Source: Ceratodon purpureus (Eukaryota; Streptophyta; Bryopsida; Pseudoditrichales; Ditrichaceae). Taken from it: 64,000 bases of DNA. Under the pieces are notes generated by a model. The model made no database searches. It saw only the letters and a list, made by a program, of their open reading frames with translations, and was not told where the DNA came from. Position 1 is the stretch's first letter; every line of letters starts with the position of its first letter. This document shows, piece after piece, positions 7,861-40,189 of this stretch. The translations under genes were made by a program, and so were the position numbers. The stretch spans positions 20,613,321 through 20,677,320 of the forward strand of contig CM026424.1 of the NCBI GenBank assembly GCA_014871385.1, given 5' to 3'.

Positions 7861-8037
7861 GGCGCCCCTTAACCCTTATTTTCTACTTTTCAAAGTCTCC
7901 TCTTCCAGGTGGCTCCTTGTCCTAGCCCGTGACTCCACGTGCTCTGCTTGGAACTGCAGGAAGTGGGAGCAACCAGATTGGGTGGGGGGGATCTTTTGGT
8001 TTTTTTTTTATTGTGTGTCCAGTTCATTATTCCAACT

Positions 8038-9461: not shown

Positions 9462-9680
9462 GGAGGGAAGCTTGTACGTGAGCGGAGAGCGCAGAGCGGA
9501 GAGCGGTGAGCGCAGATTTGGAGAGCGGAGAGCACAGAATGGGGGACAGAACCTAAAAATAGCAACTTTTTTACTAAAAATAAATTATAAAATTAGAAGA
9601 TCCGAATATTCTTAGTGTATTTTTGGAAAAATACTAATTTTAGTAATTTTATTGACCCTATAACCGTGGAATAATTACAG
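9462..9680 (+). repeat. Left terminal inverted repeat of element A
   Basis: Hexamer-rich part at 9479-9534 (GAGCGGAGAGCGCAGAGCGG pattern), then CACAGAAT, an AT-rich stretch and CCCTATAACCGTGGAATAAT near 9656-9676. Its reverse complement is found at 28060-28184 with few differences over the first 75 or so bases and again at the CCCTATAACCGTGGAA motif. Confidence 0.85.
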
Positions 9681-9955
9681 TGTTTTCATTGAATTTGTAG
9701 TTCGTTTTCTCTTTTTTTTGATGATTGATTTTTTAACGTGCACCAATTACTATGCTCCAGCTCCTTCTAACTAGTTTAGGCATACATTAATTCCCTTTAT
9801 CTCCTCAAATTTATATGCAAAATACCGCATAAAATGTATTGGTATTAAAGCTCTTAAGAGGGATAAAGTAACATTTAATATCGTAACAATTTCTTAACAT
9901 TGTTAGAAATCATCCGCCATGGTCTACATGGTTTATTTCTTTTATTCTTCATATT

Positions 9956-10470
9956 AACTTCCATTACTCTATCTATCTTTCCTTTCCTTTAATTCTCTTT
10001 CATTTTCTTTTCTCTTTCATTTTATTCTCTCTTTCATTTTATTTTTCCTTTCATTTTATTTTCTAGTTCCTTTTATTTTCTCTTTCATTTTATTCTCTCT
10101 TTCATTTTTTTTTTTCTTTCATTTTATTTTCCTTTTCATTTTATTCTCTCTTTCATTTTCTTGTCTCCTTCATGATAATTTCTCTTTCATTTTATTTTCC
10201 TCTTCATTTTATTTTCTCTTTCATTTTATTTTGTCTTTCATTTTATTCTCTCTTTCATTTTATTTTGTCTTTCATTTTATTCTCTCTTTCATTTTATTGT
10301 CTCATTCATTTTATTTTCTCATTCATTTTATTTTCTCATTCATATTATTTTCTCATTCATTTTATTTTGTCTTTCATTTTATTTTCTCTTTCATTTTATT
10401 TTCTCTTTCATTGTATTTTGTCTTTCATTTTATTTTCTCTTTCATTTTCTTAGTCGCCTTCATATTATTT
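9956..10470. repeat. T-rich minisatellite (CTTTCATTTTATT)n
   Basis: Tandem variants of TCTCTTTCATTTTATT with a period of about 17-18 bp, followed by T and A tracts to about 10558. The long Phe/Leu/Ser frames here are compositional artefacts. Confidence 0.85.
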
Positions 10471-10752
10471 TCAACCTTAATATTTATTTTTGCTTTTTTT
10501 CCTTTTAGCTTTTATAATTTTTTTAAAATTTTTTTTTTTTTTTTTTAATTTTAAAAGCTAAATGACTTCTGCTCAACCCTCATCCTTTTCCATTCAGTTG
10601 AGGAAGATGCAACTTTCAAATGAATGAATATCCGATTTTCAAGGGCGCCAAGCATCTCCTTCACGGATATTTAAGTTAGGATTATGGAATGTCTCTTCCT
10701 CTTTTGTGTTGGTGTTTTGTGAAGCTCTTTTCCGTAGTGCGGGACAACAGGT

Positions 10753-11205
10753 ATGGAAGACGTCAGAGATATTGTTGTTTCACTTGCTGACGATGTTTGT
10801 CCATTTCAACCATATGTTGAGGTGGACGACGAAGAAGAGGTGATGGGCAACAGCCAAGGGCGTCCTTCGACAAGGGATGTTGACGTACAACCGGATGTAA
10901 GAGCTGACCCTCCACGTTCAGAAAATTCGGATGATATCAGAATGCTGGAGAAGGACGCAGATGTGCCTTTGCAACCACATGCATACTCGAAGGTTGGAAA
11001 GATCCCAAGGGGAACCTATTCCAGGGAATCAGTGAATCGGAGGCGGGGAGGTGGGGCATTGCTGAAACGTTCATACCAAGGACACTTGCCAAGTGTGGGA
11101 CCGAAAGTGAACGCGAATGTAGTTTGTCCTGTAGTACAGTCAGTGGGTGGCAGTCCTGCTGATAGTGTAGTGGGCAACCCTAAACGTGTTAGGTTCGAAG
11201 ATTAG
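10753..11205 (+). CDS. Small acidic protein of unknown function (MULE cargo)
   Basis: ORF of 150 residues beginning MEDVRDIVVSLADDV. It is acidic in the first third (VEVDDEEEV) and basic around residues 90-110 (NRRRGGGALLKRS), and ends NPKRVRFED. The KRVRF sequence resembles a short docking motif such as RVxF, but this is only a pattern match. It lies between the left end of element A and the 3' end of the transposase, and is convergent with it. An AG just before the ATG (CAACAG, 10745-10750) could be a splice acceptor, so an upstream exon is possible. No known domain is visible. Confidence 0.45.
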   Translation: MEDVRDIVVSLADDVCPFQPYVEVDDEEEVMGNSQGRPSTRDVDVQPDVRADPPRSENSDDIRMLEKDADVPLQPHAYSKVGKIPRGTYSRESVNRRRGGGALLKRSYQGHLPSVGPKVNANVVCPVVQSVGGSPADSVVGNPKRVRFED

Positions 11206-11459
11206 GACATCTAATAACAAGTATATATTTGCCGTAACAAATGGTACATGTCAGGGGATACGAGGTATATAATACACTTCTTCAAGATAGAATGTATTGA
11301 AATAGAGTGCAATCAATGCGAACGACAAAGCCTTTAATATAATGAAAAAGTCAATACAGCTTCTGAATAGCTGACTTAGTACATGGTATATTACTAAAAT
11401 CATTCACTACGTGACAAATGGCCAATGTGGAAATGGCAGTTCTAAAGTAGGAGGGCTAC

Positions 11460-14400
11460 CTACTTCTTCGCCAAGGGGTGACGCAAGATTCCACTCTCTA
11501 AGAGTAGCTTGACCTCGTTGAAGCTGAAGGTAGGCGCATGGATGAAAAGCTCGGCCTCGGGATCACGGTTGCAGACCTTCAAGAGTATGTAGTATAGGTG
11601 CTTACAATACGTGAATTGAGTCTTGCCACGGAACGTAGTCATCGTCTTCTTGAATGCTGGGCAAGTGCAACCAGGGTAAGAACTGATGGTAATCTGGTAC
11701 CGCGTGATGTGTGGAGTGACGCCCGAATCCAGCCCAATGATGCAACCGTGGCCCGGCTCAGGTATCATGGTGACGGAACGGAGGCGCGCTTTTAGAGACT
11801 CGGAGGAGCCCATGGAGAGTCGCTGCGCTTGATTGGGACGAGTGGCAGTGCGCTTCACCATCTTGCCGTCTCTCTTGCCTGGGTAGTGGTCAGCGTCTGC
11901 AGGGACTGGCACCGTGCTGAGATTTTCAGGGGGCGGGGCAGACGAGAACAGGCGTCTTGGGGAGACCGGTTTCTTCGGCGGAAGTTGAAAGCCCGCTGCT
12001 TCGAGGGCAAGAATCTCAGTAAGTTTTAGGTTAGTACCTAGTTTCACTGGCCACACCTCTGGAATGGAGGGGAATTCCTGGTCCTTTGAGTAGTGTGCTA
12101 CCCACTTGCGCTTAGAGCCTTTCACGCAACGCTCGATATCGTCGGAGCAGAAGAAGAACTCAGTCTTCTCCACTAGGTTCCTGCGATAGTTAGTCCAGAG
12201 CCCAGTGTAGGTCGGTGCAGCTGTGCAATGGGGCCCCCTGACGATTCTCTCAGTGCACTTCTTCTTCGTTTCAGCTCTTTGGGCCCAGCAGCACTTCGCA
12301 GAAAGTTTGTGAAGTCTCGAAATGTGCCACTCCTTCACGTCCACCTTGGTTTCTTCAACCGCGTTGACATGGCGAATGCCGCCCTTGTTCATAGGTGAAG
12401 GTAAAGGGGAATCAACTTCCTGGGGAGGAGGTTGGGTACATTGTACCTCGGTGTCGTGTTCGGAGTCGTCTTCCACAATGACGGGCATCTGCATAGGGCG
12501 AGCCCTGACGGCACGTCTTGGGCCTCTTGGGCGTGAGAAGTTGGTCTTATCCGGGCGATGAGACTCTTCGTCAGCTCCGATAAGGACGTCGGCTTTTCGC
12601 TTCTGTGAACCGAAGACTTCCGCTCCTGGCATGATAGGCTGACGGGTGCAGAACTCATCCGCGCCTGGCATATCGAGCATGGGCTTGTCGAGTAGTGTAG
12701 GATTTCCCCATTTCTTCGCGTTGCGTTCCGCCATCCGAAGCCTGAGTTCCTTCTTGGATGGTCCTGTTCCGCCGACGTCACCTTTGAGGAACTGGTAGTA
12801 GTTGACAACCTGTAGAAATGCCCGAACGAAATCGTCCACGGTAGCAACGTAGAGGTCGTTCCCATTGTTTCCTGAAGCTTGGAGCCACTTGTTGTGAACT
12901 GTTTCGGCGAGGTTACAGGTGGGCATCTCTGTGAGTTCTTCTTTCGTGAATTTCTGCAGATTTGACAGTAGATGACGTTAGATTCAAGGATTAGAGTTCT
13001 GTAGGTTAGGGCTAGGAAACCAGTATCAAAAACATCAAAACAGAATGCAGAGATCATACCTCGGTCATGAATCCCCCCCACTGGCGGAAGCGGTGGTGCC
13101 AGAATGACAGCCACTGATCGAGTTTGATGAGCCCGCTCTCGCCAACGACCCCGGTGGATGCCCACCATGCTCGCAACGCGTGGTATAGAGTTTCCGCCTC
13201 TGCCATGCTGGTCGCATTCTTGTACTGAGTGCACATCTTCTTGTGCTGTTCCCAGAGTTCTTCGGGGAAGTGCTTCTGCGTATACGCCACCATATTCTGA
13301 GTCCAGTGGAACAAGCACGACCTCTCCCGGTCCTCCATTGGGTCTTCCTTGTTGCCATTGCCGTAAAGGATTCGCACTGCATTCCAATTCGCCTGTGCGT
13401 TATCCGCCATGAACCCCTTGAAGTTCGGCGCTGCAACGCCATTGATCTCCATGACCAGGTTCAGGTTTTTCCAGAAGACGAGCTGGGCCTCCGTGTCTTC
13501 GGACTGCATGTCGCAAGTGGCGATTGTCATCACGCGGCAGTAGGTGGCGTCGTACACATGGCACGCCATGGTCGACCAATCTTTGACACGTTTTACATGG
13601 TCGAACATGATCCATGCGTTCTCCAAATCGCCACCAGCTTGCATACGGCTGACCAAGTCGACACCACTTCCCGGCCCGACCTCCGACATCTTGAAGACAA
13701 AGACTTTGTCACGCATCGATCCCTGACCAGGAAACCTATTCTCCTGGACATACGCCCAGAGACTGTTACCACGGAGCTTGGTGATACCGTCCATGATTCC
13801 GTATCTTACGAATTTTTTGAAGGTGGCGACTTTGTTGCGGATGTTGGGCGACGCCATGTCTTTGCATCGATCCAGAACAGGAACCAGCTCCTCCATCGTC
13901 AGTTTCCTCGGTGGTGCATCCTCGGGCTGTAGAAGGTAGCTCCCGATGAGGAGTTTGCTCGCCTCCAGGACAACGGCGCTCTTTGTTGCTTTGTTGTTCA
14001 TCTCTACCTGCTCTTCTATTAAGCTACTAATCTCTGCTTTAGAGTCTCTGTAGTCTCCAACTTTCACTGGATGATCATGTGTTCCTATGTGAATACAAGC
14101 TCTAGTCTGATTCGGTTTGCCCACAACATAATAAATCTTAGCCTCGCATGTAGCTACACATGATGGAGGTTCTTTACATACCTTGCACACTAGCGTGGAG
14201 TCAGACGGAGGAGGCTGGTCCATGACAAAAGCTTGCAGGGTACAGCCTTCGAACTCAGTCTCGTTTACCTCGAAGATCTTGGGAACACGCTTGAGGAAGT
14301 CACACTCCTTGTTGCTGCAGCGGAGCCATCCGACGCAGGTGGAACTTCGAAAAGAGAGTCCGAAGTCGTTTTTGATGTTTGTTGTGATGGTCTTGGTCCA

Positions 14401-15225
14401 CAAGTGTCCGTCGTATCGTTTGTCCATTCCCTGCATAGACTTGGCGGCGAGCTTAGAGGATCCTGCAGCAGCTGGGGGCAACTCAAAAAGAACCGGACCA
14501 TCAAACTTCGCAGGCAAGTACTCAACTCTCTCGTGTCTAATAGTGGAATAGTCTAACTTTTTCAAAATGTTTTTTGACCCACGTGTCTTAGCAAGCTGTT
14601 GAAGGAGGGGGACAATGCTAACTGTGAGCTGGGACAATGGAGGAGAGACATTGGAAGGAGGAGCATCAGCGTCGACCTTAGGCACGAACTTGACGGGACT
14701 GACTTCGTCATCAGAAGAGACAGATATGACGGTGGGAGGAGGTTTCTCTACATCTGAAGTCTCGGTACCAGGCTCGACTTTGACTTTGACATCGCGAGGT
14801 AAGGGAGTCTGAATTGTGCAAGTAGAAGAGCGACGGGGGGTGAGGATCTCAGTGGATGCAGCCATCAGAGAATCAGTAAGACCATAGACTCTATAGGATC
14901 CAGGGAGGAGTCTCCACTGCAACATATTGTTCTCATCTCTCGTGGAAAGTTGCCCGAGGGTGTGGGTAACCTCTGCAGTAACGTCATCAAAGATTTCCTC
15001 TTCTATACTGATGGTATCCTCACGGAAATGAAATCTGAGACTCAGGCGAAGAGAGGAAACTGTAGCTAGACCATCGTCATCCACGCGAAACCTAAGAGGG
15101 ATACCCATGCCTTGGGCGTACAGACAGACCATCTCCATGATCGAAGGTAACTGAGGCAAGAAGGGAGAAGTGTGACTGTACCGGCGAAGCAATATTTCGA
15201 GAGCAAAGTGAGAGGAATAATGCAT
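11460..15225 (-). CDS. MULE-type transposase with SWIM zinc finger (two exons)
   Basis: Read on the minus strand as exon 1 15225-13060 and exon 2 12953-11460, joined in phase 0 (GGFMTE then KFTKEELTEM). The donor is GAG|GTATGA and the acceptor CTGCAG|AAA. The protein has about 1219 residues. The N-terminal third is acidic and low-complexity. A middle Cys/His segment (WLRCSNKECDFLKR ... CKVC ... THDHPV) resembles the FLYWCH/WRKY-GCM1-type fingers of Mutator transposases. The catalytic core shows VYDATY (first Asp), FMADNAQANWNAVR (second Asp) and a C-x2-H (CLFHWTQN). The C-terminus carries a SWIM finger, CTCPAF ... YCKHLYYIL. The 9-bp duplication around the element agrees with Mutator activity. 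It is transcribed divergently from the methyltransferase-like gene. I see no internal stop, so it may be functional. Confidence 0.85.
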
Positions 15226-15766
15226 CGCTGTTGATCATTATATTGAGGTCGGAATGTCCATGTGAACTGGTGGAGAATGATTCATTCTGTTACGTAACGA
15301 ATGTACGATTTAAGAGGGACGGCTCTAACTATTGTGATTGTGACTTTTTGCTGGCCGAAGTATAGGAGGTACGATATTAATAACTCTGCTTTAATAATTT
15401 CAATCGTGGCGCAGATTCTATTTGTTATAAAGTTTGGTAAGATTGGATTGCGCCGTCTTTAAAATTCTACATTTAAATCAGTGAATATAAAAGGGAGCAT
15501 GCTTTCAAGTGCTTGATTCTAATCTCTTAATTTATAGTGTGCTTGGATTTCGACTATATATTTAAAGGTTAATATTTTAAACTACACTTCAGAATAGAAC
15601 TATTATGAATTTTCTTAAAATGAAGAGTGTATAAAATGTTTATAGTGTTAAGATGCTATATGAACTTAGGGTTGTATCCAAATAGTTGTTCCTTATAGGT
15701 ATTTAAGCGGGCAGGAAATTCTTTAGAGAGTCTTTTTGTGAGAGAGTCCGTCCTTTGGTTAGACAC
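15226..15766. promoter_or_regulatory. Divergent promoter between transposase and methyltransferase-like gene
   Basis: A 541-bp spacer separates the ATG of the transposase (complement 15225) from the ATG of the plus-strand gene (15767). A TATAAAA lies at 15486-15492, with further TATA-like sequences near 15555, 15630 and 15700. Shared control of both genes is an inference from the layout. Confidence 0.45.
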
Positions 15767-16213
15767 ATGAAGCAGAGTGAAGGGCCATCTCCCTCCACTT
15801 ATGTCACTCCTAAACCTAGACGAAAACGAGGTGTTACAGATTTTACAGATAGAAGAGCGAGGAAGAGGAGAGAGTCACGTAAGAAGGTAGAATTTCAACC
15901 AGACCATGTGAGTGCTCCTGTGAAAACGAGAGGATCAGGTTTGCCTGTAGCTTTAAAGTTCTGTAGCATTCGCAAACTCATTCTAGACTCTATAGTGGAG
16001 GAGGAGGAAGAGTCTTTAGAGAACACCGTTTCCAAAAATCTCGAGGAGGAAGAGGAGGTACTCTTATGTGGAGTTGATTGTCAAGCCATGACGGAAGAAT
16101 TAGTTTTTAACTGTAGTCAAAGAGCAGAGTCCCCGCAGCCGTCTATCGAATTCAATGACTCTTTGACGGGGGAGACGGATTCTCAATCAGATCTAAATTT
16201 TAACACTGATAAG
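15767..16213 (+). CDS. First exon candidate of the methyltransferase-like gene
   Basis: ORF from ATG 15767 (MKQSEGPSPSTYVTPKPRRK) to the strong donor AAG|GTAAGT at 16214, phase 0. It is basic at first (RRARKRRESRKKVEF, a likely nuclear localisation signal) and acidic later (VEEEEESLEN, LEEEEEVLL). The phase matches the small exon at 21787. It could instead be a separate small gene; a transcript would decide. Confidence 0.5.
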
Positions 16214-19200
16214 GTAAGTATTTGAAAACCATCTTTATTACTGTGGATCATTTAAATTTATTCAGTATTGTGAAGAGAAGAAGCAATACCATATACCGAA
16301 TTGAAATAGTTTTAGGAAAATATCCGAAGGATCAAATTCAAGTCACAAAATTGCCTCAGTCGAAAATTGTTTTTCATATGAATATAGAGTAACCAAAGGA
16401 TAAGGTTAGTCGAGGAGTCAAGTGAGCATCTCATTCTCGTGGCAAGAAGGGCGAGGGAAGGAATTCTCAAGGCTGGTGAAGGGGGCGTAGCGATGGCGGC
16501 ACGGGAGGCGGGTGAGCTCGGGCGAGGCGTGGAGGAGGGAGATATGCCTGTGGGAGGAGGCGCGGCCGGTATGGGCGAGGAGGCGCTTCAGCTTGCAGAG
16601 CTTGGGGGAGATGGAGGGCTCGGGATCGGAGCTGGAGATGAGAGCGAACCAGCAGAGGAGGCCGAAGCTACAGAGGAGGACCCAGTTGAGGAGGACGAGG
16701 ACGATGACCAGGTTTCTCCCTCAACCCGCAGCTAGTGTGTAAAGTACTTGATGTGACATTGGATTCGAATTCATATTTTGGGTTTATTCGGTCGTACGGG
16801 AATAAGTGGTGTAATGATGTCGTACGGCAATGATAACGGATTTCGAACTTGGGTTCATGATTCAAGATTTGCTGCAGTTGGGTTGAGAGAATGTGGTTTA
16901 GAATGTGAGTTCGGTTTGAGGATTGGAGATTGCGGTATTGCGGATTGGAGCTTTGGGGAGTGGGGATTGCTTCTGTTCTGTGTGTTGGGGATTCATTCTC
17001 TGCTGTTGCTGCCTCCGGTTGCTCTGCCTGCCTGCTCGCTTGCTCACGGATTCGAAAAAATGGATTTCAACGTAGTTTGGGTATTTATTATTGTTGTTTT
17101 TGGTGGTTGCTGCTTCTTTGGACTGCTCTTAAAGCCTGCTTGTTATCTATTCGGATTGCTATGATTTAGAGGTTTAGGGTCTCTCTACCATGCCTGCTCC
17201 TGTAGTGCTTGTTTCCACCTTTGTGCTCGTCGGAGTCTTCTAGATCTGAATGGGGTTTTGTGACTGCTCCGCCTGGAGTTGTTTTTGATGATTCTGGTCG
17301 TGGTTAATCAACTCAGCTGCTGCTTGTAATGAAGTTCGCGTTGCTTGCGTTTCGTTATGGCTGCAGCCCAACTCTCATAGTTGAGTTTGGGATTTCTAAA
17401 GTGCTTCGGGTTCGCTTGGGGTGTAGAAGATTCGGAAACTAGAATTAACATTGAAACCATGCCTGGGGAAGAATGAATGCATCGACAGTAGGTCAGGGTC
17501 AGAGGCGGGGATTTTCATTTTGTTTTTTAATTTTTTTTTTCGGGTTCCAATTTGTATAATGGTATTGCATAATTGATCCCATCATGTAAATTAAATTGTG
17601 AAGATGATGGGGATTTTATCGTGATTTTTTGGTTTAATTTATTTTTTTCGAAAACTCAAGAACCCGCAAGCCTACTGTCGTTGACGACAGTAGGTCTTGG
17701 GCTGGGAGTTTAATTTCGGGATTTTCATTTTGTTTTTTTATTTTTTATTTTTTCGGGTTCGAATTTGTATAATGGTATTGCATAATTGATCCCATCATGT
17801 AAATTAAATTGTGAAGATGATGGGGATTTTATCGTGATTTTTTGGTTTAATTTATTTTTTTCGAAAACTCAAGAACCCGCAAGCCTACTGTCGTTGACGA
17901 CAGTAGGTCTTGGGCTGGGAGTTTAATTTCAGGATTTTCATTTTGTTTTTTAATTTTTTTTTTCGGGTTCCAATTTGTATAATGGTATTGCATAATTGAT
18001 CCCATCATGTAAATTAAATTGTGAAGATGATGGGGATTTTATCGTGATTTTTTGGTTTAATTTATTTTTTTCGAAAACTCAAGAACCCGCTAGCCTACTG
18101 TCGTTGACGACAGTAGGTCTTGGGCTGGGAGTTAAATTTCGGGATTTTCATTTTGTTTTTTTATTTTTTATTTTTTCGGGTTCGAATTTGTATAATGGTA
18201 TTGCATAATTGATCCCATCATGTAAATTAAATTGTGAAGATGATGGGGATTTTATCGTGATTTTTTGGTTTAATTTATTTTTTTCGAAAACTCAAGAACC
18301 CGCAAGCCTACTGTCGTTGACGACAGTAGGTCTTGGGCTGGGAGTTTAATTTCGGGATTTTCATTTTGTTTTTTTATTTTTTATTTTTTCGGGTTCGAAT
18401 TTGTATAATGGTATTGCATAATTGATCCCATCATGTAAATTAAATTGTGAAGATGATGGGGATTTTATCGTGATTTTTTGGTTTAATTTATTTTTTTCGA
18501 AAACTCAAGAACCCGCAAGCCTACTGTCGTTGACGACAGTAGGTCTTGGGCTGGGAGTTTAATTTCGGGATTTTCATTTTGTTTTTTTATTTTTTATTTT
18601 TTCGGGTTCGAATTTGTATAATGGTATTGCATAATTGATCCCATCATGTAAATTAAATTGTGAAGATGATGGGGATTTTATCGTGATTTTTTGGTTTAAT
18701 TTATTTTTTTCGAAAACTCAAGAACCCGCAAGCCTACTGTCGTTGACGACAGTAGGTCTTGGGGTGGGAGTTAAATTTCGGGATTTTCATTTTGTTTTTT
18801 TTTTTTTTTTTTTTCTTGTTCGAATTTGTATAATGGTATTGCATAATTGATCCCATCATGTAAATTAAATTGTGAAGATGATGGGGATTTTATCGTGATT
18901 TTTTGGTTTAATTTATTTTTTTCGAAAACTCAAGAACCCGCAAGCCTACTGTCGTTGACGACAGTAGGTCTTGGGCTGGGAGTTAAATTTCGGGATTTTC
19001 ATTTTGTTTTTTTATTTTTTATTTTTTCGGGTTCGAATTTGTATAATGGTATTGCATAATTGATCCCATCATGTAAATTAAATTGTGAAGATGATGGGGA
19101 TTTTATCGTGATTTTTTGGTTTAATTTTTTTTTTTCGAAAACTCAAGAACCCGCAAGCCTACTGTCGTTGACGACAGTAGGTCTTGGGCTGGGAGTTTAA

Positions 19201-22200
19201 TTTCGGGATTTTCATTTTGTTTTTTTTTTTTTTATTTTTTCGGGTTCCAATTTGTATAATGGTATTGCATAATTGATCCCATCATGTAAATTAAATTGTG
19301 AAGATGATGGGGATTTTATCGTGATTTTTTGGTTTAATTTATTTTTTTCGAAAACTCAAGAACCCGCAAGCCTACTGTCGTTGACGACAGTAGGTCTTGG
19401 GCTGGGAGTTAAATTTCGGGATTTTCATTTTGTTTTTTTATTTTTTATTTTTTCGGGTTCGAATTTGTATAATGGTATTGCATAATTGATCCCATCATGT
19501 AAATTAAATTGTGAAGATGATGGGGATTTTATCGTGATTTTTTGGTTTAATTTATTTTTTTCGAAAACTCAAGAACCCGCAAGCCTACTGTCGTTGACGA
19601 TAGTAGGTCTTGGGCTGGGAGTTTAATTTCGGGATTTTCATTTTGTTTTTTTTTTTTTTTTTTTCGGGTTCCAATTTGTATAATGGTATTGCATAATTGA
19701 TCCCATCATGTAAATTAAATTGTGAAGATGATGGGGATTTTATCGTGATTTTTTGGTTTAATTTATTTTTTTCGAAAACTCAAGAACCCGCAAGCCTACT
19801 GTCGTTGACGACAGTAGGTCTTGGGCTGCGAGTTTAATTTCGGGATTTTCATTTTGTTTTTTTTTTTTTTTTTTTCTGGTTCGAATTTGTGTAATATCAA
19901 TGCATAATTGATCGGATTATGGGATTCCAATGGGATTTTCGCGGTTTTTTTTTTAATTTATCTTGTTTTTGACTTTTTGTGTCACAAACTCTGATTTCTT
20001 TATAAATTGTCAACGTATTTTAATGGTTTAGGGTCATTTTTTGAAATAATTAAAAAAATCCAAACCTACTGTCGTCAACGACAGTAGGCTGGGTGCATGA
20101 GGGTCGGTTTGGGGATTTTTAAGGTTTTTTTTTATTTTCTGTTATTTCTGAATCTTTGTGTTATGTGAATGGGACTAGGCACACAAAGACTCAATGAGAA
20201 TCTGATTATTGTGAAATTGTATACGTGTTGTAATGGTTTTAATTCATTTATTGAAAAAATAAAAAAACTCCAAACCTACTGTCGTCAACGACAGTAGGCT
20301 GAGTGCATGGGGTTAGGTTTGGGGATTTATGGGGATTTTTTTAATTTTTTGTTATTTCTGATTTTTTGTGTTATGTGATTGGGACTAGGCTCACAAAGTG
20401 TCAATGAAAATCAGATTTCTTTTTAAATTGTATACGTATTTTAATGGTTTAATTTCATTTTCTGAAAAAAATAGAAAAATCCAAACCTACTGTCGTCAAC
20501 GACAGTAGGCTGGGTGTATGGGGTTCTGTTTGGGGATTTTTGTGGATTTTTTTCATTTTTTGTTATTTCTGAATTTGTTAAAATGTGAAGCTTTAGGATT
20601 TTTATACGTATTTTAATGGTATATATTTTATTATTTTTAATTTGAAAGACCTCCATAACCTACTGTCGTCAACGACAGTAGGCCGGAGGCGTCTGGATCA
20701 TTTTGGGGATTTCTGAAGTGTTTATTTATTTTTATATTATTGGTGTTAATTGATAAAAGAAAATTAGTCATATTTTGATGCTTTTGGATTTCAGTACACT
20801 CGTTAATGATATTTATTGTTTTTTTATTTTTTTAAAAAAACCTCCAAACCTACTGTCGTCAACGACAGTAGGCCGAAGGCGTCTGAATCATTTTGGGGAT
20901 TTCTGTACTGTTTATTTATTTTTATATTTTTGGTGTTAATTGATAAAAGAAAATTAGTTATATTATGATGCTTTTGGATTTCAGTACAGTCATTAATGAT
21001 ATTTATTGTTTTTTTATTCTTTGAAAAACACCTCCAAACCTACTGTCGTCAACGACAGTAGGCCGGAGGCGTCTGGATCATTTTGGGGATTTCTGTAGTG
21101 TTTATTTATTTTTATATTTTTGGTGTTAATTGATAAAAGAAAATTAGTTATATTATGATGCTTTTGGATTTCAGTACAGTCATTAATGATATTTATTGTT
21201 TTTTTATTCTTTGAAAAACACCTCCAAACCTACTGTCGTCAACGACAGTAGGCCGGAGGCGTCTGGATCATTTTGGGGATTCTTGCGAATTTGTGCTATG
21301 GTATGCAATTATGCTCTCAAAGTTTTTAAGATTTTAAAAGGTTTTTTTGAGAATGGTTATGGTTTGATGGGCATGATGGGCAAGGGGGTTGCTTTGTTGA
21401 TTTTTGGGAATTGTTTTAATTTTTATTTTCTTTGAATGTTTGTGAGAATGGGATTTCTCTCACAAAGACTTGATGAAGTTCTGGATTTTTTTTGGGATAG
21501 TGGAATTGTTTACGTGCTTTCTTTTGATATTTAAAAAAATAAAAGAAGACCGCAAACCTACTGTCGACGATGACAGTAGGCCGGGGGCATTGGGGTTGGT
21601 TTGGGGATTATTGAAAATCGTTTTCTTAGCATTTTTATGTTTATTGAATGGGATTTTGCTCAGAAAGTCTTGATGAAAATCTTAGAAGTTCTTATGAGTT
21701 TTTAAGGTTCATTAGGGAGCCTTCTGGAGGTTGTGGTTTGATTCTTCATAGTTGCAATTTTTTCTAATAATTATCAATTTGCTTAGGACCATGATGGAGA
21801 TCATCTGGGGAGTGAACGTCAAGACCCGACGCCAGCGGAAACTGAGGTATTTCATTTAATTTTCAATTTATATTTTTCCTTCTGTTTATGAATTTGAGTT
21901 CAATTCGGCTTATACCCATCGCTGTTTCCTACTGTTTTAAATATGGGAGTTAATCCTCAGTTCATTTCTTCTACTCTAGGTATCATCCGATGCTCCTGAG
22001 ATGTCTGCTACTTCCCCCATTTCTGTCATCAATGTTTCCGATCTTTCGGATTCATTTGATCAGTACTACTGTACCTGTGATGTAGCCAACCCTGTAGGTG
22101 TGGAAAGTGGACCTCTCGAGGTCCACTCTCCACAGTACATGCCTACCTCTCCAGTGTACATGCCTACCTCTCCAGTGTACATGCCTACATCCCCGGTGTA

Positions 22201-25200
22201 TGAGCCAACCTCCCCGGGCTATATGCCCACGTCTCCTCCTCAGGGCTCCCCGCCGATGTCTCCACCCTCTCCTTCCTCGCCGATTAGAGTCAGGAGGCCA
22301 GCCCATGTCGTCTTTGCTCTGCCGGCTATTCTGCCCTGCCCTGTCCAACAGACCAGGCGATTTTGGAGGAGGCGCCGTCACTGGAACTGTAGACAGTCTA
22401 AGGAGTACTATAGTCGATCCTCACGTAGATAGTTTTATCAATCACAGATGATGATTGAGTTGTTAAAAGAGAGATGACAGTATGAAGATATATTGTTACT
22501 TTCTTTTACATACTTGTCAACTTTGCATGACTTTCTTCGATTGTGCTTGTTCTCCTAATTTGCGCACCTTCTGGCAGGTTACGCAAACACAAGATGTGTT
22601 GGTGAAACCATCTTGTCCGTTAAACTTGAAGACTGCCACAGAAGGGGAATTGGAACATCAAACCAAATTCAAGGTGAACACCAACGCCGTCATCAACAAG
22701 CTTAGGATCAAGCCATCGCAGAAGTCCCGAATGTCGGTGCCCCTGTGCAGGATGATCCCAATGGCAAAGGTCAGACCAGTGGGCGAAGTGGGTGTGCAGC
22801 ATTTGGAGCGAGAGTTCGTCAAGGGGTATAGAGATGGCGACCGCGTCATGTACGTCTCCATGTACAACAACGAAGAGCAGACACGAGATGTTACGGACGA
22901 GGTCATGGCTAAATGGAGCCCATTGTGGAGGGACGCGAATGATGCATTTGAATCTGAGCTTCTAAATGACGAGGACTGGTCGCAATTCTCGGGGAAGATG
23001 TTTTTTGTCTGGGAAGGTAACCATCGCCTCTCAGCATGGCTTCGTCATATCAACAAGCATCATGCAGACGACCCGTCATGGCACATATCTGTGAACTGCA
23101 TAGTACTCGATCCCCGTGGCCATGTTGGCAATCTTCTTCACGCAATGCATGACATCAACTGGTAAGTACTTGTTTCTTTTCTCCTGTTTTTCATTTCTTA
23201 CTTTATCTCATCACTTTTATTCATCATACGTATTTTGGTTTCTTTTCAGGTCGACTGAGAATGACCACGTCAAGAGTAATCTCCCTGCAAAACTATTTCG
23301 AATCCGCTCTTTTGGAATGATGAAGCTTGAGGAATTCAAAGACCTTCTAAGTCCTGAAGAGTATGACGCATGTTTGAAGAACAAGCCACCTAATCCCTCC
23401 TGGTTTCCGTTGACAACTAAAGTTTTCATCGCATTTCTGTACCGAGTAAGTCCTACCTCCTCTCTCTATTTGCTTCTTATTCTTCAATACTCATGGAATT
23501 TCCTAAGCCTGAATTATCCATCTACAGCGGGAACTTGCAGCGGCCTCCGATGAAGCAGCAAATGCCTACCGCATGAAGACACCCGAGGATGAGCAGTCTG
23601 CAAGTGCAATTTGGGATGTCATGAATGAGGCATCAGAGAGAATGGTCGAAGCCATCAAGAAGAAGGACTTTACCAAGTACTTGGCCATTGCAAATCCCAA
23701 GAATGGTGACGACTTCCTCAATGAGGTGACTCACTGATCATTGTTCAATTCACAATTTCGTATGACTTCATTAATTTCTGTATTTATCTTTTTTAAACTT
23801 CCGTGCTTCTTGCAGATTAATCGCCATTTCAGTCTCAACAATAAGCCTGAGATGTCAGTCGATAAGCTTCAGAAGGTTGTTCCAGCGGCCGTTGAGGCCA
23901 AATACAAGGCTCGTTGGTTGAAGTGGTGGAACTCATCCCCGAGTGCTCGAACGTCTTACATATTTCTGCCATCTGAATTCAAAGACACCGAATTCGACCC
24001 ATGGTTGAACAAAGCTTCATTCTGGGCAGGGGTAATTTTCATTAAAAATTTCTTTCGATTTCCTTGTTCCTTTATTTTTTTCTGTATTTCTTCTTCGCTG
24101 CTTCTTATATGATTTTTTTATTACAGTTGGAGGAAGCCGTCATCCACGAAGTCGAGGACGTATTCAAGTCTGAGAACCTCGATATCAATTGGATAGCATT
24201 TCCTGATGTCCAACAGCCGGGCGATTTTGTCGAGAGTTCACGTATTCTATTATGGGACAAGGCCTTCCCTACGTTCATTGGAAAAAAAGCTGAGAAGCAC
24301 TTCGACAAGAAGTCCAACTTCGCTAAATTCCCTGGAACCGCTCAAGTTGTCAAGCGGGTTACTTACCGGTACATTACCAAACTTAATCGCATTTCCATTT
24401 CATAGTTTTCATTGTAATTGTTTCTTATACTTACCTCCTTTGTGTCTTCCCATAGGTACTTCAAGCGAGAGCTTCTATTGAAGGGGGCCATCAGCGTTCA
24501 GCAACTCCCCATGTACTTCAAGCTTTGGACGCAGACAACCTCGGACCTGTGTATCTATTCTCCCCAGCAGATAAAAAGGTACAAAGCTGCTCACCTGGAC
24601 GCTGGATGCTGGTATCTTGATTGTATTGGTGGTTTCACTATTGACTCCGAGGCGGAAGTCAAGATGCTGCACGATGGAGGTGCGGTTGTCGTGGAGGACT
24701 CCATGGATGATGCAGAACGTCCTGAAGGAGAGCAGGATCAGTCTTCTGCTCCTCCACCGAAGAGAGGGAGAGGAAGGCGACTGAAATCTCTGGGTTCTCA
24801 GTCAGGGGCATCACAGCAAACTGGTGCGGAGTCTTCCGCGCCAGCTGACAAGGCACCAGATCCGTCTCCGGGTATTGTCGTTACGAACCCTTCTCCAGCT
24901 TCTTCACCGGCTCCTTCCTCGATCAGTGCTTCGGAGATCACCAGAGGTCTCCTTCAGCAGAGGAAGGCCAAACTATATCCTCAAACAACTTCTTCCGCTG
25001 GAGCTTCGATTTCCACACATGTCTCCGTCTTCAACTCATCTGTGGATTCCATGTTACGGCGAAATAGGAGACAGGAGAGAAAAGGTGGCGACCCGGATTG
25101 GATCAAGACTCAAGACTTCATTCGCAAGGTTTGTTCCTATATTTTGACATTTACTGGATTCTGCCACCTCTACTCGCTATGTAGTTACTAACTCTGCTTT

Positions 25201-26529
25201 CTTGTTTCCTCAAGTTCGGAGCAGGCCGCGAAAACATAGTTGGGGACCGGTGCAAACAAGAGGACCATCTGGGAGTCGACTTGATCATTGCCGACATCCC
25301 TGAGAATCTTCCCGTCCCATCCGTTTCCGTTCCCCCCACGAGTATTCCGCCTTGGAACTCTCGCTACAAGGATTATTTGTACGACATCTTCCGTTTTGCA
25401 GATGATTTCCTGCAGAAAGATGGTGCCATCTGCCTCATCTACAACACTGATCAGAAGCTGGCTAAGGATATCGACGAAGAAGCTGCTGCTGGTTACTACG
25501 TGCTCTTCAAGGACTGGTGGGGTGTCAATGTACTCGGCCTGACTTCTCCTACGAACCCCGAGAACTTGGTACTTTTCCTAAACATGCCCTTCTCTTCGCT
25601 TACTGATAACCCTTCCGCTTAATTTTACTCACTAGTTCTGCTTGACTGCAGACTATGCGGTTCTGGATTCGCGTCTACGTTCGTAGTGGCAGTACTTTCT
25701 CCTTCCAGACGAAGAAGGAAGACCTGATACATGGGCTCCTCAACATTACCGAGAGTGATGCCATTTTCAACTTCACCGATGCCGAATCTCAGCTCATGAA
25801 TGGGGAGGTGCCGTGGAGAGGCCCAAGGGAGAAATCACCTGAGATGATGCAGAACATCATTGAGGAGCTGTCCAAGCCCGGCGACATAGTCCTTGACTGG
25901 AATGCTGGGACAGGTATCTCTCTTACATATCTCTGCTTCATTTTTCCTCTCGTTCTTTCCAAAGTTTCTCATTTCTTTGTTTCTCTTCGAGTTTCAGGGG
26001 CCTCCATCAAGGCCGCCCAGGCTGTTGGTCGTCACATTCTCGCTTTTGAGGAGGACGAAGCCATATTCAACGCCCTTCTCAAACCATCCGCCATGGGCCC
26101 TCCTAAACATCCAAGGCCGGCAGCAACAGGCGAAGCGCCTCCAAAGAGAGCAAGACCTGACAAGTGGTGTACGTCTTCTATTCTACGTTCAATTATCCAA
26201 GCATTACTTCTCTTTGCAGCTCTACGTACTCTATCTAACCACAATCGGTTCTCTATTGCAGAGTAGTTTCTGCATCACCGCCACGTGTGCCAAGAGCAGT
26301 GTCCACTCCATCGTGGCGTCTTCATTCCAGCCCGATTCAGCCTTTCATACTTCCGGACTACGCAGAGGGCTTAGCACAGGCGTTTCAATCTGGAGCCCTT
26401 ACATATGTTCCTAGTCGGCCAACTTCTTTTGATCCCAGGGCCCTTCAATTCGTCGATGACGAGGCGGTAGAAGGAGATACGGAGTCATCTAGTTCTGAGA
26501 GTGAAAGTAGTGACTGTAGCATGTTGTGA
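15767..26529 (+). CDS. CTD-heptad / ParB-like / beta-class DNA aminomethyltransferase-like protein (multi-exon)
   Basis: Exons read from splice sites and frame: 15767-16213, 21787-21846, 21980-about 22288 (donor uncertain), 22578-23161, 23250-23445, 23528-23725, 23816-24031, 24127-24368, 24456-25128, 25215-25568, 25652-25913, 25998-26168 and about 26264-26529; roughly 1,300 residues. Order: basic-acidic N-terminus; five CTD-like heptads; a ParB/Srx-like segment around FFVWEGNHRLSAWLRHI with following beta strand HISVNCIVLD; a conserved unknown middle; DLIIADIPENLP at the place of motif IV (normally DPPY); then PWRGPREKSPEMMQNIIEEL and LDWNAGTG-ASIKAA as motif I. IV before I is the beta-class order. 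The DIPE tetrad lacks the usual PP-aromatic, so activity is doubtful. Splicing in phase throughout argues for a living gene. Joining exon 1 to the rest across the 5.6-kb satellite intron is inferred from matching phase. Confidence 0.65.
16410..16711 (+). CDS. Possible low-complexity exon
   Basis: An open frame with Gly/Ala/Glu-rich sequence ends EEDEDDDQ|GTTTCT (donor at 16712, phase 0) and opens near the acceptor-like GGTTAG at 16404-16409. Its GC content is far above its neighbours. The start phase does not match exon 1, so membership in the gene is uncertain. Confidence 0.25.
16743..17480. other. Intronic region without clear features
   Basis: G/T-rich unique-looking DNA between the possible exon and the satellite. 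The open frames (16778-17164 and overlapping) have no coding signature I trust. Confidence 0.4.
17483..19885. repeat. 213-bp satellite with embedded 24-bp palindrome (array 1, 11 copies)
   Basis: Eleven units of about 213 bp. Each carries the hairpin CCTACTGTCGT, spacer TG, ACGACAGTAGG at 17671, 17884, 18094, 18307, 18520, 18733, 18945, 19158, 19371, 19584 (one arm mismatch) and 19795. A half-site (CGACAGTAGG) at 17483 marks the left border. Copies are nearly identical except for T/A tract length, so the array is young. The small repeated frames inside it are satellite translations, not genes. Confidence 0.95.
20040..21260. repeat. Diverged palindrome array 2 (7 copies, spacer CA)
   Basis: Units of 173-211 bp with far more diverged flanks keep an invariant 24-mer: CCTACTGTCGT, spacer CA, ACGACAGTAGG at 20065, 20275, 20486, 20659, 20849, 21039 and 21229. 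Because the arms are self-complementary, the CA spacer means the 24-mer is exactly the reverse complement of that in array 1. Flanks vary but the 24-mer does not. Confidence 0.9.
21557..21580. repeat. Isolated 19th palindrome, altered centre
   Basis: CCTACTGTC, centre GACGAT, GACAGTAGG. The arms are shortened to 9 bp but outer bases and total length (24) are kept. It lies 328 bp beyond array 2 and about 206 bp before the small exon at 21787. Confidence 0.8.
22100..22133. repeat. 34-nt inverted repeat just before the CTD-like heptads
   Basis: Arms of 15 bp (GTGGAAAGTGGACCT and AGGTCCACTCTCCAC) with one mismatch around a 4-nt loop CTCG, inside the coding exon. In RNA this would be a strong hairpin immediately 5' of the heptad codons. 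Confidence 0.75.
22136..22240 (+). other. Five RNA polymerase II CTD-like heptads
   Basis: Five consecutive 21-nt units encode YMPTSPV, YMPTSPV, YMPTSPV, YEPTSPG and YMPTSPP, followed by QGSPPMSPPSPSSP. Consensus RPB1 repeats are YSPTSPS, so Tyr1, Pro3, Thr4, Ser5 and Pro6 are all kept and only positions 2 and 7 vary. The frame is the one entering in phase 0 from the exon at 21787. Confidence 0.85.
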
Positions 26530-27041
26530 GGTTGAAGGAGGCTTCGGTCTATTGTTGTTTTGATTTGATTTGATTTGATTTAATTGGAGTTCACTGCGTA
26601 ATCCTTCGTCTACTCTACTTCCCTGAACCTAAATTGTTATAATTCTCATGTCCAATTTGTCTCCGTGTTTGTAAAGGATGAAATGTCACAACTCTAATGC
26701 TCAAAATATAATATGAAGAATGAAATGTTAAAAAAGAAAGGCTCAAATGTAATATTGTGCTGTTATTTATATTTTACTCATTCAAAATCCCACATTTGCA
26801 TAGCCATGTTACCTATTCTTCACTTGGTGTACATCTTGGTTTCGGCTACTCCATTATTGTACACGAACTCTGAAATATTCCACGGACTTTTCAGACTATT
26901 TCTTATAGTTGGTTTTTCTTTTCTTATTTCTAGAATCATCTATATTATCTAAAACCATCATGCTGGAATACTCGTATCTAGATCCAATGAATGACCAAAT
27001 CTTAAGAATTGTATTCGAACACCCCACTAGACTTCACTGTA
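26530..27041. other. 3' flank of the methyltransferase-like gene
   Basis: AT-rich; begins with a short (GATTT)n run at 26563-26580. Nothing coding seen. Confidence 0.6.
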
Positions 27042-27518
27042 CTAATCCTTCGAAGGATATACAGTCCAACTCTTGTCCATATCAAACCAGCAAGTTTCGC
27101 CATCCGATATGATCACTTCGGGCAGCTGAACAACTGGATTCTCATCGACGTTCGATAGCAAGGGATACGGGATTAGGGATAACTCCATAATACGGAGAAG
27201 CTCATTGGTACAAAGCACTGTCCAACGCCATTCACCTTCACCAACATGGAGGCTTCCGATGTGCCTAAACGGTGGCAGGTCCATGCCTCGATCCCTGGCG
27301 CGCTCCACCTCCAGCAGCCACGGCCGCAGCTCCTCATAACTCGCCGGTGCCTTTGGGGGCAAACCTACAGCCGCTCTCGTCCTCCTGGATCTCGCATTAC
27401 ACACCTTCGGCATCGCGCAACACACTAAATTCTTGTAGTCTTCAAACGTTACAGGCAAGCTTGCAGATTGACATCCCCGAACTCCTACGCTACCTTTGCA
27501 TACAGCACAGAATGCCAA
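27042..27518 (-). CDS. Small Cys-containing protein, unknown (MULE cargo)
   Basis: A 158-residue ORF, MAFCAVCKGS at the start with further cysteines (CCAMPKVC) and no obvious domain. A later part (RWTVLCTNELLRIMELSLIPYPLL) looks like a folded segment. It lies convergently about 500 bp after the methyltransferase-like gene and inside element A. I do not recognise it; it may be the terminal exon of a longer minus-strand gene or a chance frame. Confidence 0.3.
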   Translation of the reverse strand: MAFCAVCKGSVGVRGCQSASLPVTFEDYKNLVCCAMPKVCNARSRRTRAAVGLPPKAPASYEELRPWLLEVERARDRGMDLPPFRHIGSLHVGEGEWRWTVLCTNELLRIMELSLIPYPLLSNVDENPVVQLPEVIISDGETCWFDMDKSWTVYPSKD

Positions 27519-28059
27519 GGACTGTATGACTATCCTAATACGCCACCTAGAGACAAGCTACCGAAACCAAGAGTGACCTCCTTCTCTGGAACCCAGCTTA
27601 CCAAGTGTTGTTTGATGATGAAAATCTCCTACTTGTATCACTCAAATGAAGATGCTTTGCTGCCTACGAAGAGAGAGTACTCTTCGATGAAGACAAGGAC
27701 TCTAACAAGGTATATCTTGGTTTCAGCAGTTAAGATATTATACACGAATTTTGAAATATTCCAGGAAGTTTTCAAACCTTGCCTCCTTTACGTTCTTTCA
27801 AATTTGTTTTTTTCCTTGTGCATTTACATAATCCTATGAAAGAATTATTTGTTTGATCTAAAACTGAACGCCTGATCATTGTATCTTGCCTAAACCCATG
27901 ACAAATCTAAAGGAATGTATGCATGACGTCATCATGACATCAGCCCTAATTTGTATCTTAGAGAACAAACGTAATAAATTCTTACCAGAGATAATCTCTA
28001 ATTTCCACGGTAATATACTCTTTTTCTAATTAAAGTGTCAAAATTTAGCCTTAATTTAG
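27519..28059. other. AT-rich right subterminal region of element A
   Basis: No gene seen. A TTTCCACGGTAATAT copy near 28000 is a variant of the subterminal motif TTCCACGGTTATAGGGTC that occurs at 28067. Confidence 0.5.
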
Positions 28060-28184
28060 TAATTTTCCACGGTTATAGGGTCTACTTTGCTTCTGAAAAT
28101 TTTCCTAATTCTCAATTCTGTGCTCTCCATTCTGCGCTCACCGCTCTCCGCTCTACGCTCTCCGCTCACATACGAACTTTCCCC
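28060..28184 (-). repeat. Right terminal inverted repeat of element A
   Basis: Reverse complement of the left end: TTCCACGGTTATAGGG (about 28067-28082), the hexamer run CCGCTC/CGCTCT at about 28113-28169 and the outer ACGAACTTTCCCC ending at 28184. Confidence 0.85.
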
Positions 28185-28193
28185 TACAGCGGG
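28185..28193. other. Right target-site duplication of the MULE (TACAGCGGG)
   Basis: Second copy of the 9-mer at 9453-9461; the kinase frame continues immediately after it. Confidence 0.85.
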
Positions 28194-30264: not shown

Positions 30265-30494
30265 AAGATTTCCACGGTCATAGATCTACGTCCTTCAGTC
30301 ATTTCACTGAAATTGTCCACGGCCATAGGTCACATTCCGAACTATATTTAGAATTTTCAAAAAGCAAAACAATGTTACTCCATAAAATACCGTAATGTTA
30401 CCGCTCTAATTCACATTTTCATCAAAATTTCTGCAAAGTTACCGCTCTCCGCTCTCCGCTCACCGCTCACCGCTCGCACTATAGCGTCGTCCCC
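30265..30494 (-). mobile_element. Right end of a second MULE-like element (element B)
   Basis: Two copies of the subterminal motif (TTTCCACGGTCATAGATC near 30275, GTCCACGGCCATAGGTC near 30317), then TGCAAAGTTACCGCTC, a CCGCTC-type hexamer run at 30442-30476 and an outer end reaching GTCGTCCCC near 30494. This copies the layout of the right end of element A. No matching left end is in the window, so the element probably starts left of position 1 and would contain the hAT and kinase genes. Confidence 0.5.
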
Positions 30495-31984: not shown

Positions 31985-32300
31985 TACTTACTTTACTGTG
32001 AGCATCCTCTTGAAGCAACCTCGCAGCCCTTGTCATAATGCCTCGGTGCCGAGGACTCCTGCTGAGGGCTCCAACTGTGATGACTAAATAATGTTTTTCT
32101 TGTTACTCTGGAGCCCATTGAAGCAACCTCGCAGCCCTTGGCATAATGCCTCGGTGCCGAGGACCCATGCTGAGGGCTCCAGCTCTGGTCAGTGCATGTA
32201 GTTCTTCTTGTTTGTTCTAGAGCGCTTTGAAGCAACCTCGCAGCCCTAGGTACAATGCCTCGGTGCCGAGGACTACTGCTGGGGACTGTAACTTTGATTA
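31985..32300 (+). repeat. Palindromic repeat array, second block (3 units)
   Basis: CCTCGG-TG-CCGAGG at 32041, 32149 and 32258 inside the intron between exons 31733-31968 and 32375-33062. Confidence 0.9.
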
Positions 32301-40180: not shown

Positions 40181-40189
40181 ACATCATGC

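What the first reader, a model, noticed from the sequence alone, without database searches (positions are those of the whole stretch)
9462..28184. A Mutator-like element that carries a ParB/DNA-methyltransferase-like gene beside its transposase
Seen: inverted ends, a 9-bp duplication, a MULE/SWIM transposase and, divergent from it, a multi-exon gene with a ParB-like GNHRLSAW motif and a beta-class aminomethyltransferase core. Known: autonomous MULEs usually carry only transposase, sometimes a ULP1-type protease; ParB-methyltransferase fusions are typical of phages and bacteria. Inference: a transposon recruited a prokaryote-derived DNA modification module, perhaps to mark or hide its own DNA.
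Basis: partly seen in the sequence, partly recalled or inferred. Interest (0 to 1): 0.95.

Follow-up and report, generated by a model that had tools for sequence, protein, structure and literature searches.

The report
Transposon carrying a methyltransferase-like self-recognition gene
This is one copy of a large jumping-gene family that carries, besides its transposase, a conserved DNA-methyltransferase-like gene whose large intron is packed with near-identical palindromes, which suggests a jumping gene that recognises its own DNA.

Summary
The 18.7-kb element is real: inverted ends, a 9-bp target duplication, an intact transposase gene and a divergent multi-exon gene. The second gene is no chance passenger: 10 of 10 copies fetched whole carry it between matching ends, with all splice sites kept, under purifying selection (mean dN/dS 0.28). 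One of its exons (D) occurs in 300 separate places in two capped searches. Its C-terminal domain is a beta-class amino-methyltransferase by HMM (PF01555, 1.8e-10), but motif IV (DPPY) reads DIPE in 11 of 11 copies, so catalysis is doubtful. The ParB label is weak. New here: the gene's large intron is an array of a palindrome, CCTACTGTC-N6-GACAGTAGG: 19 sites in the window, 3328 genome-wide (control 0), arms exact in 203 of 216 sites examined while flanks diverge. Copies with a different exon D version carry other palindromes or none. Best reading: an element-encoded protein that recognises the element's own arrays, as VANC proteins do in Arabidopsis VANDAL elements, probably to escape silencing. 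Binding and function are inferred.

The parts
9453..9461 (.). Left copy of the target-site duplication, TACAGCGGG
28185..28193 (.). Right copy of the target-site duplication
9462..28184 (.). Whole element, 18,723 bp
   Evidence: TIRs, TSD and matching ends in 10 of 10 fetched copies
9462..9526 (+). Left terminal inverted repeat, with repeated GAGCGGAGAGC motif
28122..28184 (-). Right terminal inverted repeat
13060..15225 (-). Transposase exon 1 (722 codons)
   Evidence: pN/pS 0.00-0.19 against 10 copies; 141 homologues
11460..12953 (-). Transposase exon 2, with SWIM-like CxC...CxH near the C-terminus
   Evidence: SWIM PF04434 E=0.1 only
15767..16213 (+). Exon A, 5' part of the divergent gene (no domain found)
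   Evidence: no frameshift or stop in the aligned part of 10 copies
16214..21786 (+). Intronic stretch between exon A and exon B; it holds the palindrome array and near its start a possible extra coding stretch (to about 16711)
   Evidence: longest forward ORF 135 aa
17671..21580 (.). Array of 19 palindromes CCTACTGTC-N6-GACAGTAGG (18 with both arms exact), in units of about 213, 210 and 190 bp
21787..21846 (+). Exon B
21980..22432 (+). Exon C: Pol II CTD-like heptads (YMPTSPV); ends in an in-frame stop that the divergent copy also has
   Evidence: PF05001 E=0.0027, under its cut-off
22578..23161 (+). Exon D: ParB-like domain with GNHRLSAW
23250..25128 (+). Exons 23250-23445, 23528-23725, 23816-24031, 24127-24368, 24456-25128: middle region, no domain found
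25215..26168 (+). Exons 25215-25568, 25652-25913, 25998-26168: beta-class amino-methyltransferase-like domain, DIPENLP at motif IV, NAGTGAS at motif I
26264..26529 (+). Last coding exon

Best explanation
The element belongs to an apparently autonomous Mutator-like DNA transposon family whose second gene is a fixed, selected part of it. SHOWN: both genes and the ends travel together; the second gene is intact in most copies read and under purifying selection; the intron array keeps one palindrome while its surroundings change; the two exon D versions sampled sit beside different palindromes. INFERRED: the protein binds the palindromes as a dimer through its N-terminal half; the methyltransferase-like half still binds AdoMet and/or DNA but probably does not methylate in the ordinary way; bound to tens of sites (spaced 190-213 bp in the main subfamily, roughly one per nucleosome; 108-171 bp in others) it keeps the element's own regulatory region open, and through the CTD-like exon of the same locus may draw in the transcription machinery. 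That would be a sequence-specific, self-targeted anti-silencing system working like VANDAL VANC proteins.
For: Multi-copy unit: transposase exon 1 in 62 scored places at 95-100% (62 of 3005 candidates scored); both genes in 10 of 10 whole copies; 44 of 62 transposases have one of the two exon D versions divergently 3-25 kb upstream (37 first, 7 second version; lists capped), 2 of 62 for the control placements; direct repeats of 10-11 bp at the ends in 8 of 10 fetched copies. Gene: 11 of 11 copies keep 1054 codons and every splice site, 9 of 11 without internal stop; mean dN/dS 0.28 over 45 pairs; exon D open in 137 of 150 first-version places. Array: in the window 38 matches on both strands, none in 100 shuffles; between unit types palindrome 88-100% identical, flanks 44-52%; 216 sites in 13 of 15 copies scanned, 203 with both arms exact, in 21 flank clusters; 3328 sites genome-wide, reversed-pattern control 0. 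Covariation: of 14 copies with exon D read, 12 with a first-version exon D (95% or more identical to the window's) all carry this palindrome; 2 with the second version (72%) carry GGCATTCG-N4-CGAATGCC or a one-mismatch form of it instead. Of 14 clusters of the second palindrome and its half-broken form listed lie 0.8-3.8 kb upstream of a second-version exon D and none beside a first-version one. The VANC parallel is close: its motifs also sit in tandem repeats in introns of VANC21 and VANB21 (PMC5735166, passages).
Against: No binding, expression, methylation or silencing data. The array lies directly upstream of exon D, so array type and exon version can co-segregate by linkage alone. Copies sharing a version are related, so counts are not independent. 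Of five further copies with exon D 86-93% identical to its search query, none had an exact first or second palindrome in about 1 kb; three had another palindrome, two had none. In the second subfamily the arrays are GC-rich with unit lengths divisible by 3 and mostly long open frames, so part of that conservation could be protein coding. The coupled arm change in the second palindrome is not strict: of 596 sites, 161 break the pair, and 8 of the 14 clusters above are listed for such broken sites. The ParB relation has no Pfam or PDB support.
Confidence: 0.47

Rival explanations
1. The protein is an active N6A or N4C methyltransferase that writes a mark on the element; the ParB-like half directs it to the palindromes.
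For: PF01555, CcrM and phage methylase matches; the AdoMet-site motif NAGTGAS is kept in 11 of 11 copies and the gene is under purifying selection; bdelloid N4CMT shows that a bacterial amino-methyltransferase can work in a eukaryote (PMC8885841, passages).
Against: Motif IV, normally DPPY, SPPY or similar, reads DIPE in 11 of 11 copies read. The aromatic residue that stacks on the flipped base is replaced by glutamate (role recalled).
Confidence: 0.15
2. The protein is a transposition accessory (like MURB of MuDR, recalled), and the palindrome array is an assembly or enhancer site for the transposase complex, or a partition or replication site.
For: The gene is fixed in the element beside the transposase; palindromic multi-site arrays recall iterons and parS (recalled); both genes are under selection.
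Against: The array is internal, not subterminal, and differs between the two versions although transposase exon 1 of the two second-version copies is 97% like the window's.
Confidence: 0.2
3. The palindromes work as RNA hairpins in the intron, or are a self-expanding satellite with no dedicated protein.
For: An 11-bp arm with a short spacer could fold as RNA (inference, not folded here); one array exceeds 13 kb with 200-bp units; spacers occur as GTCAAC and as its reverse complement GTTGAC.
Against: Sequence and not just pairing is kept: 203 of 216 sites have both 9-bp arms exact, so almost no compensatory changes inside this type; the same palindrome sits in units whose flanks are otherwise unlike.
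Confidence: 0.13
4. The methyltransferase-like gene is host or foreign DNA captured once, a passenger.
For: MULEs tend to acquire host gene fragments (PMC6446971, start of abstract).
Against: 10 of 10 whole copies carry it; 300 separate exon D places; purifying selection; 108 homologues of exon D in other data.
Confidence: 0.02

Closest known systems
VANDAL21 / Hiun MULEs of Arabidopsis with the VANC anti-silencing protein (PMC5735166, passages; PMC10398659, start of abstract only)
   Same: MULE with an extra gene; short motif piled up in tandem repeats in non-coding parts and introns; motif changes between related families together with the protein.
   Different: No Pfam family in common was found; the VANC21 motif YAGTATTAY is 9 bp and arrayed in one orientation, here a 20-24-bp palindrome. 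Anti-silencing is shown for VANC, only inferred here.
TET/JBP-carrying DNA transposons of fungi (PMC12730594, passages)
   Same: DNA transposons that carry a DNA-modification enzyme gene.
   Different: Different enzyme (dioxygenase); no palindrome array is mentioned in the passages I saw.
SET-domain MULEs and HarbingerS of Phytophthora (PMC6446971, PMC12730594, passages)
   Same: Transposons with an epigenetic enzyme gene.
   Different: Histone and not DNA methyltransferase domain.
Bdelloid N4CMT (PMC8885841, passages)
   Same: Prokaryote-type amino-methyltransferase in a eukaryote, linked to transposons.
   Different: Host gene that helps to silence transposons, motif SPPY intact; here encoded by the transposon, motif altered.
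VirB of Shigella, a ParB-type antisilencer (PMC10770331, PMC10653881; start of abstract in the search listing only)
   Same: A ParB-type DNA-binding protein that lifts silencing at specific sites.
   Different: Bacterial; membership of our protein in the ParB family is not established.

Membership tests
Mutator-like elements (MULE) | Target-site duplication of about 9 bp (8-11 bp in the groups with a stated length in PMC6446971, passages) | tested here: met
   TACAGCGGG in the window; direct repeats in 8 of 10 copies, none found in one, one not judged because the script took a nested end
Mutator-like elements (MULE) | Terminal inverted repeats (common, not universal) | tested here: met
   52 nt, 90%; matching ends in 10 of 10 copies
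Mutator-like elements (MULE) | MULE-type DDE transposase recognised by HMM | tested here: inconclusive
   No MULE Pfam match; one of 27 members touches Transposase_mut at 0.034; invariant D559, D608, C637xxH640 in alignment A3 fit the MULE pattern as recalled; AlphaFold model poor
Mutator-like elements (MULE) | SWIM zinc finger (common, not universal) | tested here: inconclusive
   PF04434 E=0.1, 12.6 bits against a cut-off of 19.6
Beta-class DNA amino-methyltransferases (N6_N4_Mtase) | Sequence homology of the AdoMet-binding half (motifs X, I) | tested here: met
   PF01555 41.6 bits, cut-off 26.7
Beta-class DNA amino-methyltransferases (N6_N4_Mtase) | Catalytic motif IV, (D/N/S)PP(Y/F/W) | tested here: not met
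   DIPE in 11 of 11 copies; HMMER aligns it with DPPY of DpnA, at a chance-level score of 0.8 bits
Beta-class DNA amino-methyltransferases (N6_N4_Mtase) | Methyl transfer to DNA | not testable with these tools
   needs enzyme or base-modification data
ParB / ParB-N domain | HMM match to a ParB family | tested here: inconclusive
   No ParB family among Pfam matches of 53 sequences; phrog_1033 in 7 of 53, best E 0.0027
ParB / ParB-N domain | GxxR-type nucleotide-binding motif in the right fold | tested here: inconclusive
   GNHR nearly invariant in 53 aligned sequences; fold not predicted with confidence, pLDDT 34.5
VANC-like anti-silencing systems | Element with an extra gene plus a motif arrayed in non-coding parts of the same element | tested here: met
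   palindrome arrays in the intron of the gene itself; that the protein binds them was not tested
VANC-like anti-silencing systems | Sequence homology to VANC (DUF1985 family, recalled) | tested here: not met
   no such Pfam match in the gene products
VANC-like anti-silencing systems | Loss of DNA methylation and derepression of target copies | not testable with these tools
   needs methylome data
Lanisha transposons | 2-5 bp TSD (given for the CMCT clade in PMC12730594, passages) | tested here: not met
   9-bp TSD

The most novel reading that the evidence does not exclude
A eukaryotic DNA transposon has turned a prokaryote-type ParB-methyltransferase protein into a catalytically altered, site-specific DNA clamp that reads a subfamily-specific palindrome, and has grown matching arrays of tens of palindromes in its own intron. 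Protein and palindrome evolve together, so each subfamily recognises its own DNA: a self/non-self code run by the transposon, used to keep its copies unsilenced.
Probability: 0.33. Interest if true: 0.93.

Novelty: new variant of a known kind. Interest (0 to 1): 0.82.

Why it matters
Few transposons are known to carry their own epigenetic tools (VANC, TET/JBP, SET; PMC12730594, passages). This family adds a DNA-methyltransferase-like protein and a dense, palindromic array in the same locus, in a large family of mostly intact copies with many relatives in public data. The pairing of protein version and palindrome version makes a concrete, cheap test of how a transposon recognises itself. If confirmed, it would be a second case of VANC-type self-recognition, built from other parts. 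My ten literature searches listed no paper whose title or abstract start describes such an element; one search found no paper at all. The library lacks most subscription journals and all bioRxiv preprints.

Tried and rejected
Passenger gene: rejected by copies and selection. Cargo kinase: the kinase-like frame (7933-9462) is the target of the insertion, not cargo. Lanisha element: rejected by TSD length. A homologue search with the whole spliced protein found nothing, presumably because the database holds single-exon frames; exon D as a two-row alignment found 108. Viral contigs: none by protein, none by palindrome. Phage and plasmid searches with the ParB-like part: no match or chance matches; the fetched phage and plasmid regions list no ParB gene that I could use. 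AlphaFold on exon D and on the transposase core: pLDDT 34.5 and 42.8, not used; no fold search was made. In one search the transposase exon 2 was read in a wrong frame; those figures are discarded. Small ORFs 10753-11205 (pN/pS 0.65-1.53) and 27042-27557 (stops in 6 of 10 copies) are not taken as genes. How exon A, the coding stretch after it, B, C and D are joined is unresolved: exon C ends in a stop in the window and in the divergent copy, and B to D is possible in phase. The host was identified only by recall and fit: 362 Mb and a 110.5-Mb contig resemble the moss Ceratodon purpureus (360 Mb, sex chromosomes above 100 Mb; PMC8000587, passages).
Full report
WHAT IS THERE. The element spans 9462-28184. 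Its arms (9465-9516, 28131-28182) are 90% complementary over 52 nt and it is flanked by TACAGCGGG on both sides. It sits inside an open frame with a protein-kinase-like domain (PF00069, E=2.8e-7, 30.6 bits, just under its cut-off of 31.7). A transposase gene runs on the minus strand (15225-13060, intron, 12953-11460). A divergent gene on the plus strand has ten exons from 22578 to 26529 that join in phase into 1053 codons plus stop, preceded by exons A, B and C.

COPIES. The window lies in a 362-Mb genome, contig C4. Transposase exon 1 has 62 scored places, all at 95-100% identity (62 of 3005 candidates scored, so a lower bound). I fetched ten copies whole: 10 of 10 carry the transposase and the methyltransferase-like gene between matching ends. 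A direct repeat at both ends was found in 8 of these 10; of the other two, one showed none and in one my script took a nested end. All ten, and the window, keep the 10-exon structure with 1054 codons and every GT/AG; 9 of 11 have no internal stop. Among the window and nine close copies mean dN is 0.015 and mean dS 0.054, ratio 0.28 (45 pairs). Transposase exon 1 gives pN/pS 0.00-0.19. Exon D alone is found in 150 places at 84-100% (13 with stops; 150 of 1908 candidates scored). A second version, 72% identical, gives another 150 places (150 of 1896 scored); the two lists share no place. Of the 62 transposases, 37 have a first-version and 7 a second-version exon D 3-25 kb upstream in divergent orientation, 44 in all, against 2 of 62 for the control placements (the same count with the first list alone was 37 and 1). 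Exon D has 108 relatives and the transposase 141 in public data at E of 0.001 or less; one of each is listed with the same longest-contig length (674,632), which suggests but does not prove linkage elsewhere.

THE PROTEIN. The C-terminal part matches N6_N4_Mtase above the curated cut-off (41.6 against 26.7 bits), and weakly CcrM (NCBIfam 9.5e-6, far under that model's cut-off; PDB 6pbd 3.9e-4) and phage methylases over up to 91% of the domain (E 9e-2 to 5e-5 in the ten listed). The AdoMet-side motif reads NAGTGAS and motif IV reads DIPENLP in 11 of 11 copies, so this is a fixed trait and not decay of one copy. Exon D holds GNHRL, and GNHR is nearly invariant among 53 aligned sequences. ParB similarity is suggestive only: phrog_1033 in 7 of 53 members, best 0.0027, nothing in Pfam or PDB. 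Compared with the divergent copy, the first 300 codons are saturated at silent sites (dS above 1.2 or not computable) while the last 450 differ little (dS 0.06-0.14), so the gene is a mosaic. Exon C carries YMPTSPV heptads like the Pol II CTD (PF05001 E=0.0027, 18.3 bits under a cut-off of 20.3), with pN/pS 0.08-0.20 in 8 of 10 comparisons (0.50 and 0.26 in the others; one copy has a frameshift and a stop).

THE ARRAY. Inside the large intron lie 19 palindromes at 17671-21580 (none in 100 shuffles). Between unit types the palindrome is 88-100% identical and the flanks 44-52%. I scanned 15 copies, window included; 13 hold 216 sites with at most 3 mismatches in the 18 arm positions (203 with none, 12 with one, 1 with two). 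They fall into 21 flank clusters, and the twelve largest are at most 64% alike. Spacers are GTCAAC 86, its reverse complement GTTGAC 52, GTCACA 63, GTCGAC 9 and a few others. All 9 close whole copies have the array, with 6-14 exact 24-mers. One copy on C6 has more than 13 kb of a 200-bp unit with the same arms (its exon D was not reached). Genome-wide there are 3328 sites, control 0 (only the first hundred rows are listed, all from one cluster). That cluster, at C1:2.47 Mb, also lies beside a transposase of this family (96%); its exon D was not seen.

PROTEIN AND PALINDROME VERSIONS. The divergent copy at C3:2.16 Mb has a different array in the same place: about 17 units of 117 bp with GGCATTCGGCACCGAAAGCC, one mismatch from a palindrome; the copy at C4:22.6 Mb has 23 sites GGCATTCG-N4-CGAATGCC, 21 with spacer GTGA and 2 with its reverse complement TCAC. 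Their exon D sequences are 97% alike and 72% like the window's. Two copies whose middle region is only 75-79% like the window, but whose exon D is 99% like it, carry the window's palindrome. So of 14 copies with exon D read, 12 of 12 first-version and 2 of 2 second-version copies match in type. Of 14 clusters listed lie 0.8-3.8 kb upstream of a second-version exon D and none beside a first-version one (the exception is C6:12543403). Within that version, the two clusters whose exon D is 98% like the query have G..C at the eighth arm position and the four at 90-91% have T..A. Against this, 161 of 596 sites genome-wide break that pair, 8 of the 14 clusters are listed for such broken sites, and these arrays are GC-rich with mostly long open frames, so coding constraint is possible. 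Five further copies (exon D 86-93% like its query) had neither exact palindrome in about 1 kb: three had others (CATTCTGTACAGAATG; GGCATTCT-GTGA-AGAATGCC; GCCATTGTCG-GCAG-CGACAATGGC, the last once only), two none. The pairing therefore holds for the two main versions and is open for the rest.

MECHANISM. I infer a dimeric, element-encoded DNA-binding protein, specificity in the ParB-like half, reading palindromes spaced in the main subfamily roughly like nucleosomes, to keep the element expressed. The nearest tested parallel is VANC: its motif lies in tandem repeats in introns and upstream regions and changes with the protein (PMC5735166, passages). A ParB-type antisilencer exists in bacteria (VirB; PMC10770331, start of abstract in the listing). 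Linkage between array and exon D remains the main confounder. The altered motif IV argues against, but does not exclude, methylation.

NOVELTY. Transposons with epigenetic genes are known (VANDAL, TET/JBP, SET). This combination and the palindrome arrays were not in the titles or abstract starts listed by my ten searches. I rate it a new variant of a known kind.

Noticed in passing
21980-22432: Exon C encodes Pol II CTD-like heptads (YMPTSPV repeats), fewer in the divergent copy, with few amino-acid changes between close copies.
   Followed up: partly
17671-21580 and the other copies: Palindrome spacers occur in both orientations (GTCAAC/GTTGAC, GTGA/TCAC) within otherwise co-oriented arrays, as if the spacer flips.
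   Followed up: partly
L032 + L033 (C6:108922500-108937000): One copy holds more than 13 kb (66 units) of a 200-bp satellite built round the same palindrome.
   Followed up: partly
7933-9462 and 28194 onward: The element interrupts a protein-kinase-like open frame (PF00069 just under cut-off).
   Followed up: no
3690-7145: Long open frame with hAT transposase domains (DUF659, Dimer_Tnp_hAT).
   Followed up: no
42152-43453: Open frame with a DDE_1 endonuclease domain (pogo/Tigger type, recalled).
   Followed up: no
796-2511 and 30407-34806: Further tandem arrays (units of 139/143 and about 108 bp); sequences related to the second array (inverted, near 40180-40400) contain CCTCGGCACCGAGG-like dyads.
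   Followed up: no
second-version arrays (L030, L039-L042; C3 copy in L027+L028): Array units of 108, 117 and 171 bp, all multiples of 9, mostly with long open frames: possibly coding repeats derived from the stretch at about 16400-16711.
   Followed up: partly
genome G000: 362 Mb with one contig of 110.5 Mb (C6): size and shape fit the moss Ceratodon purpureus, inferred only.
   Followed up: partly
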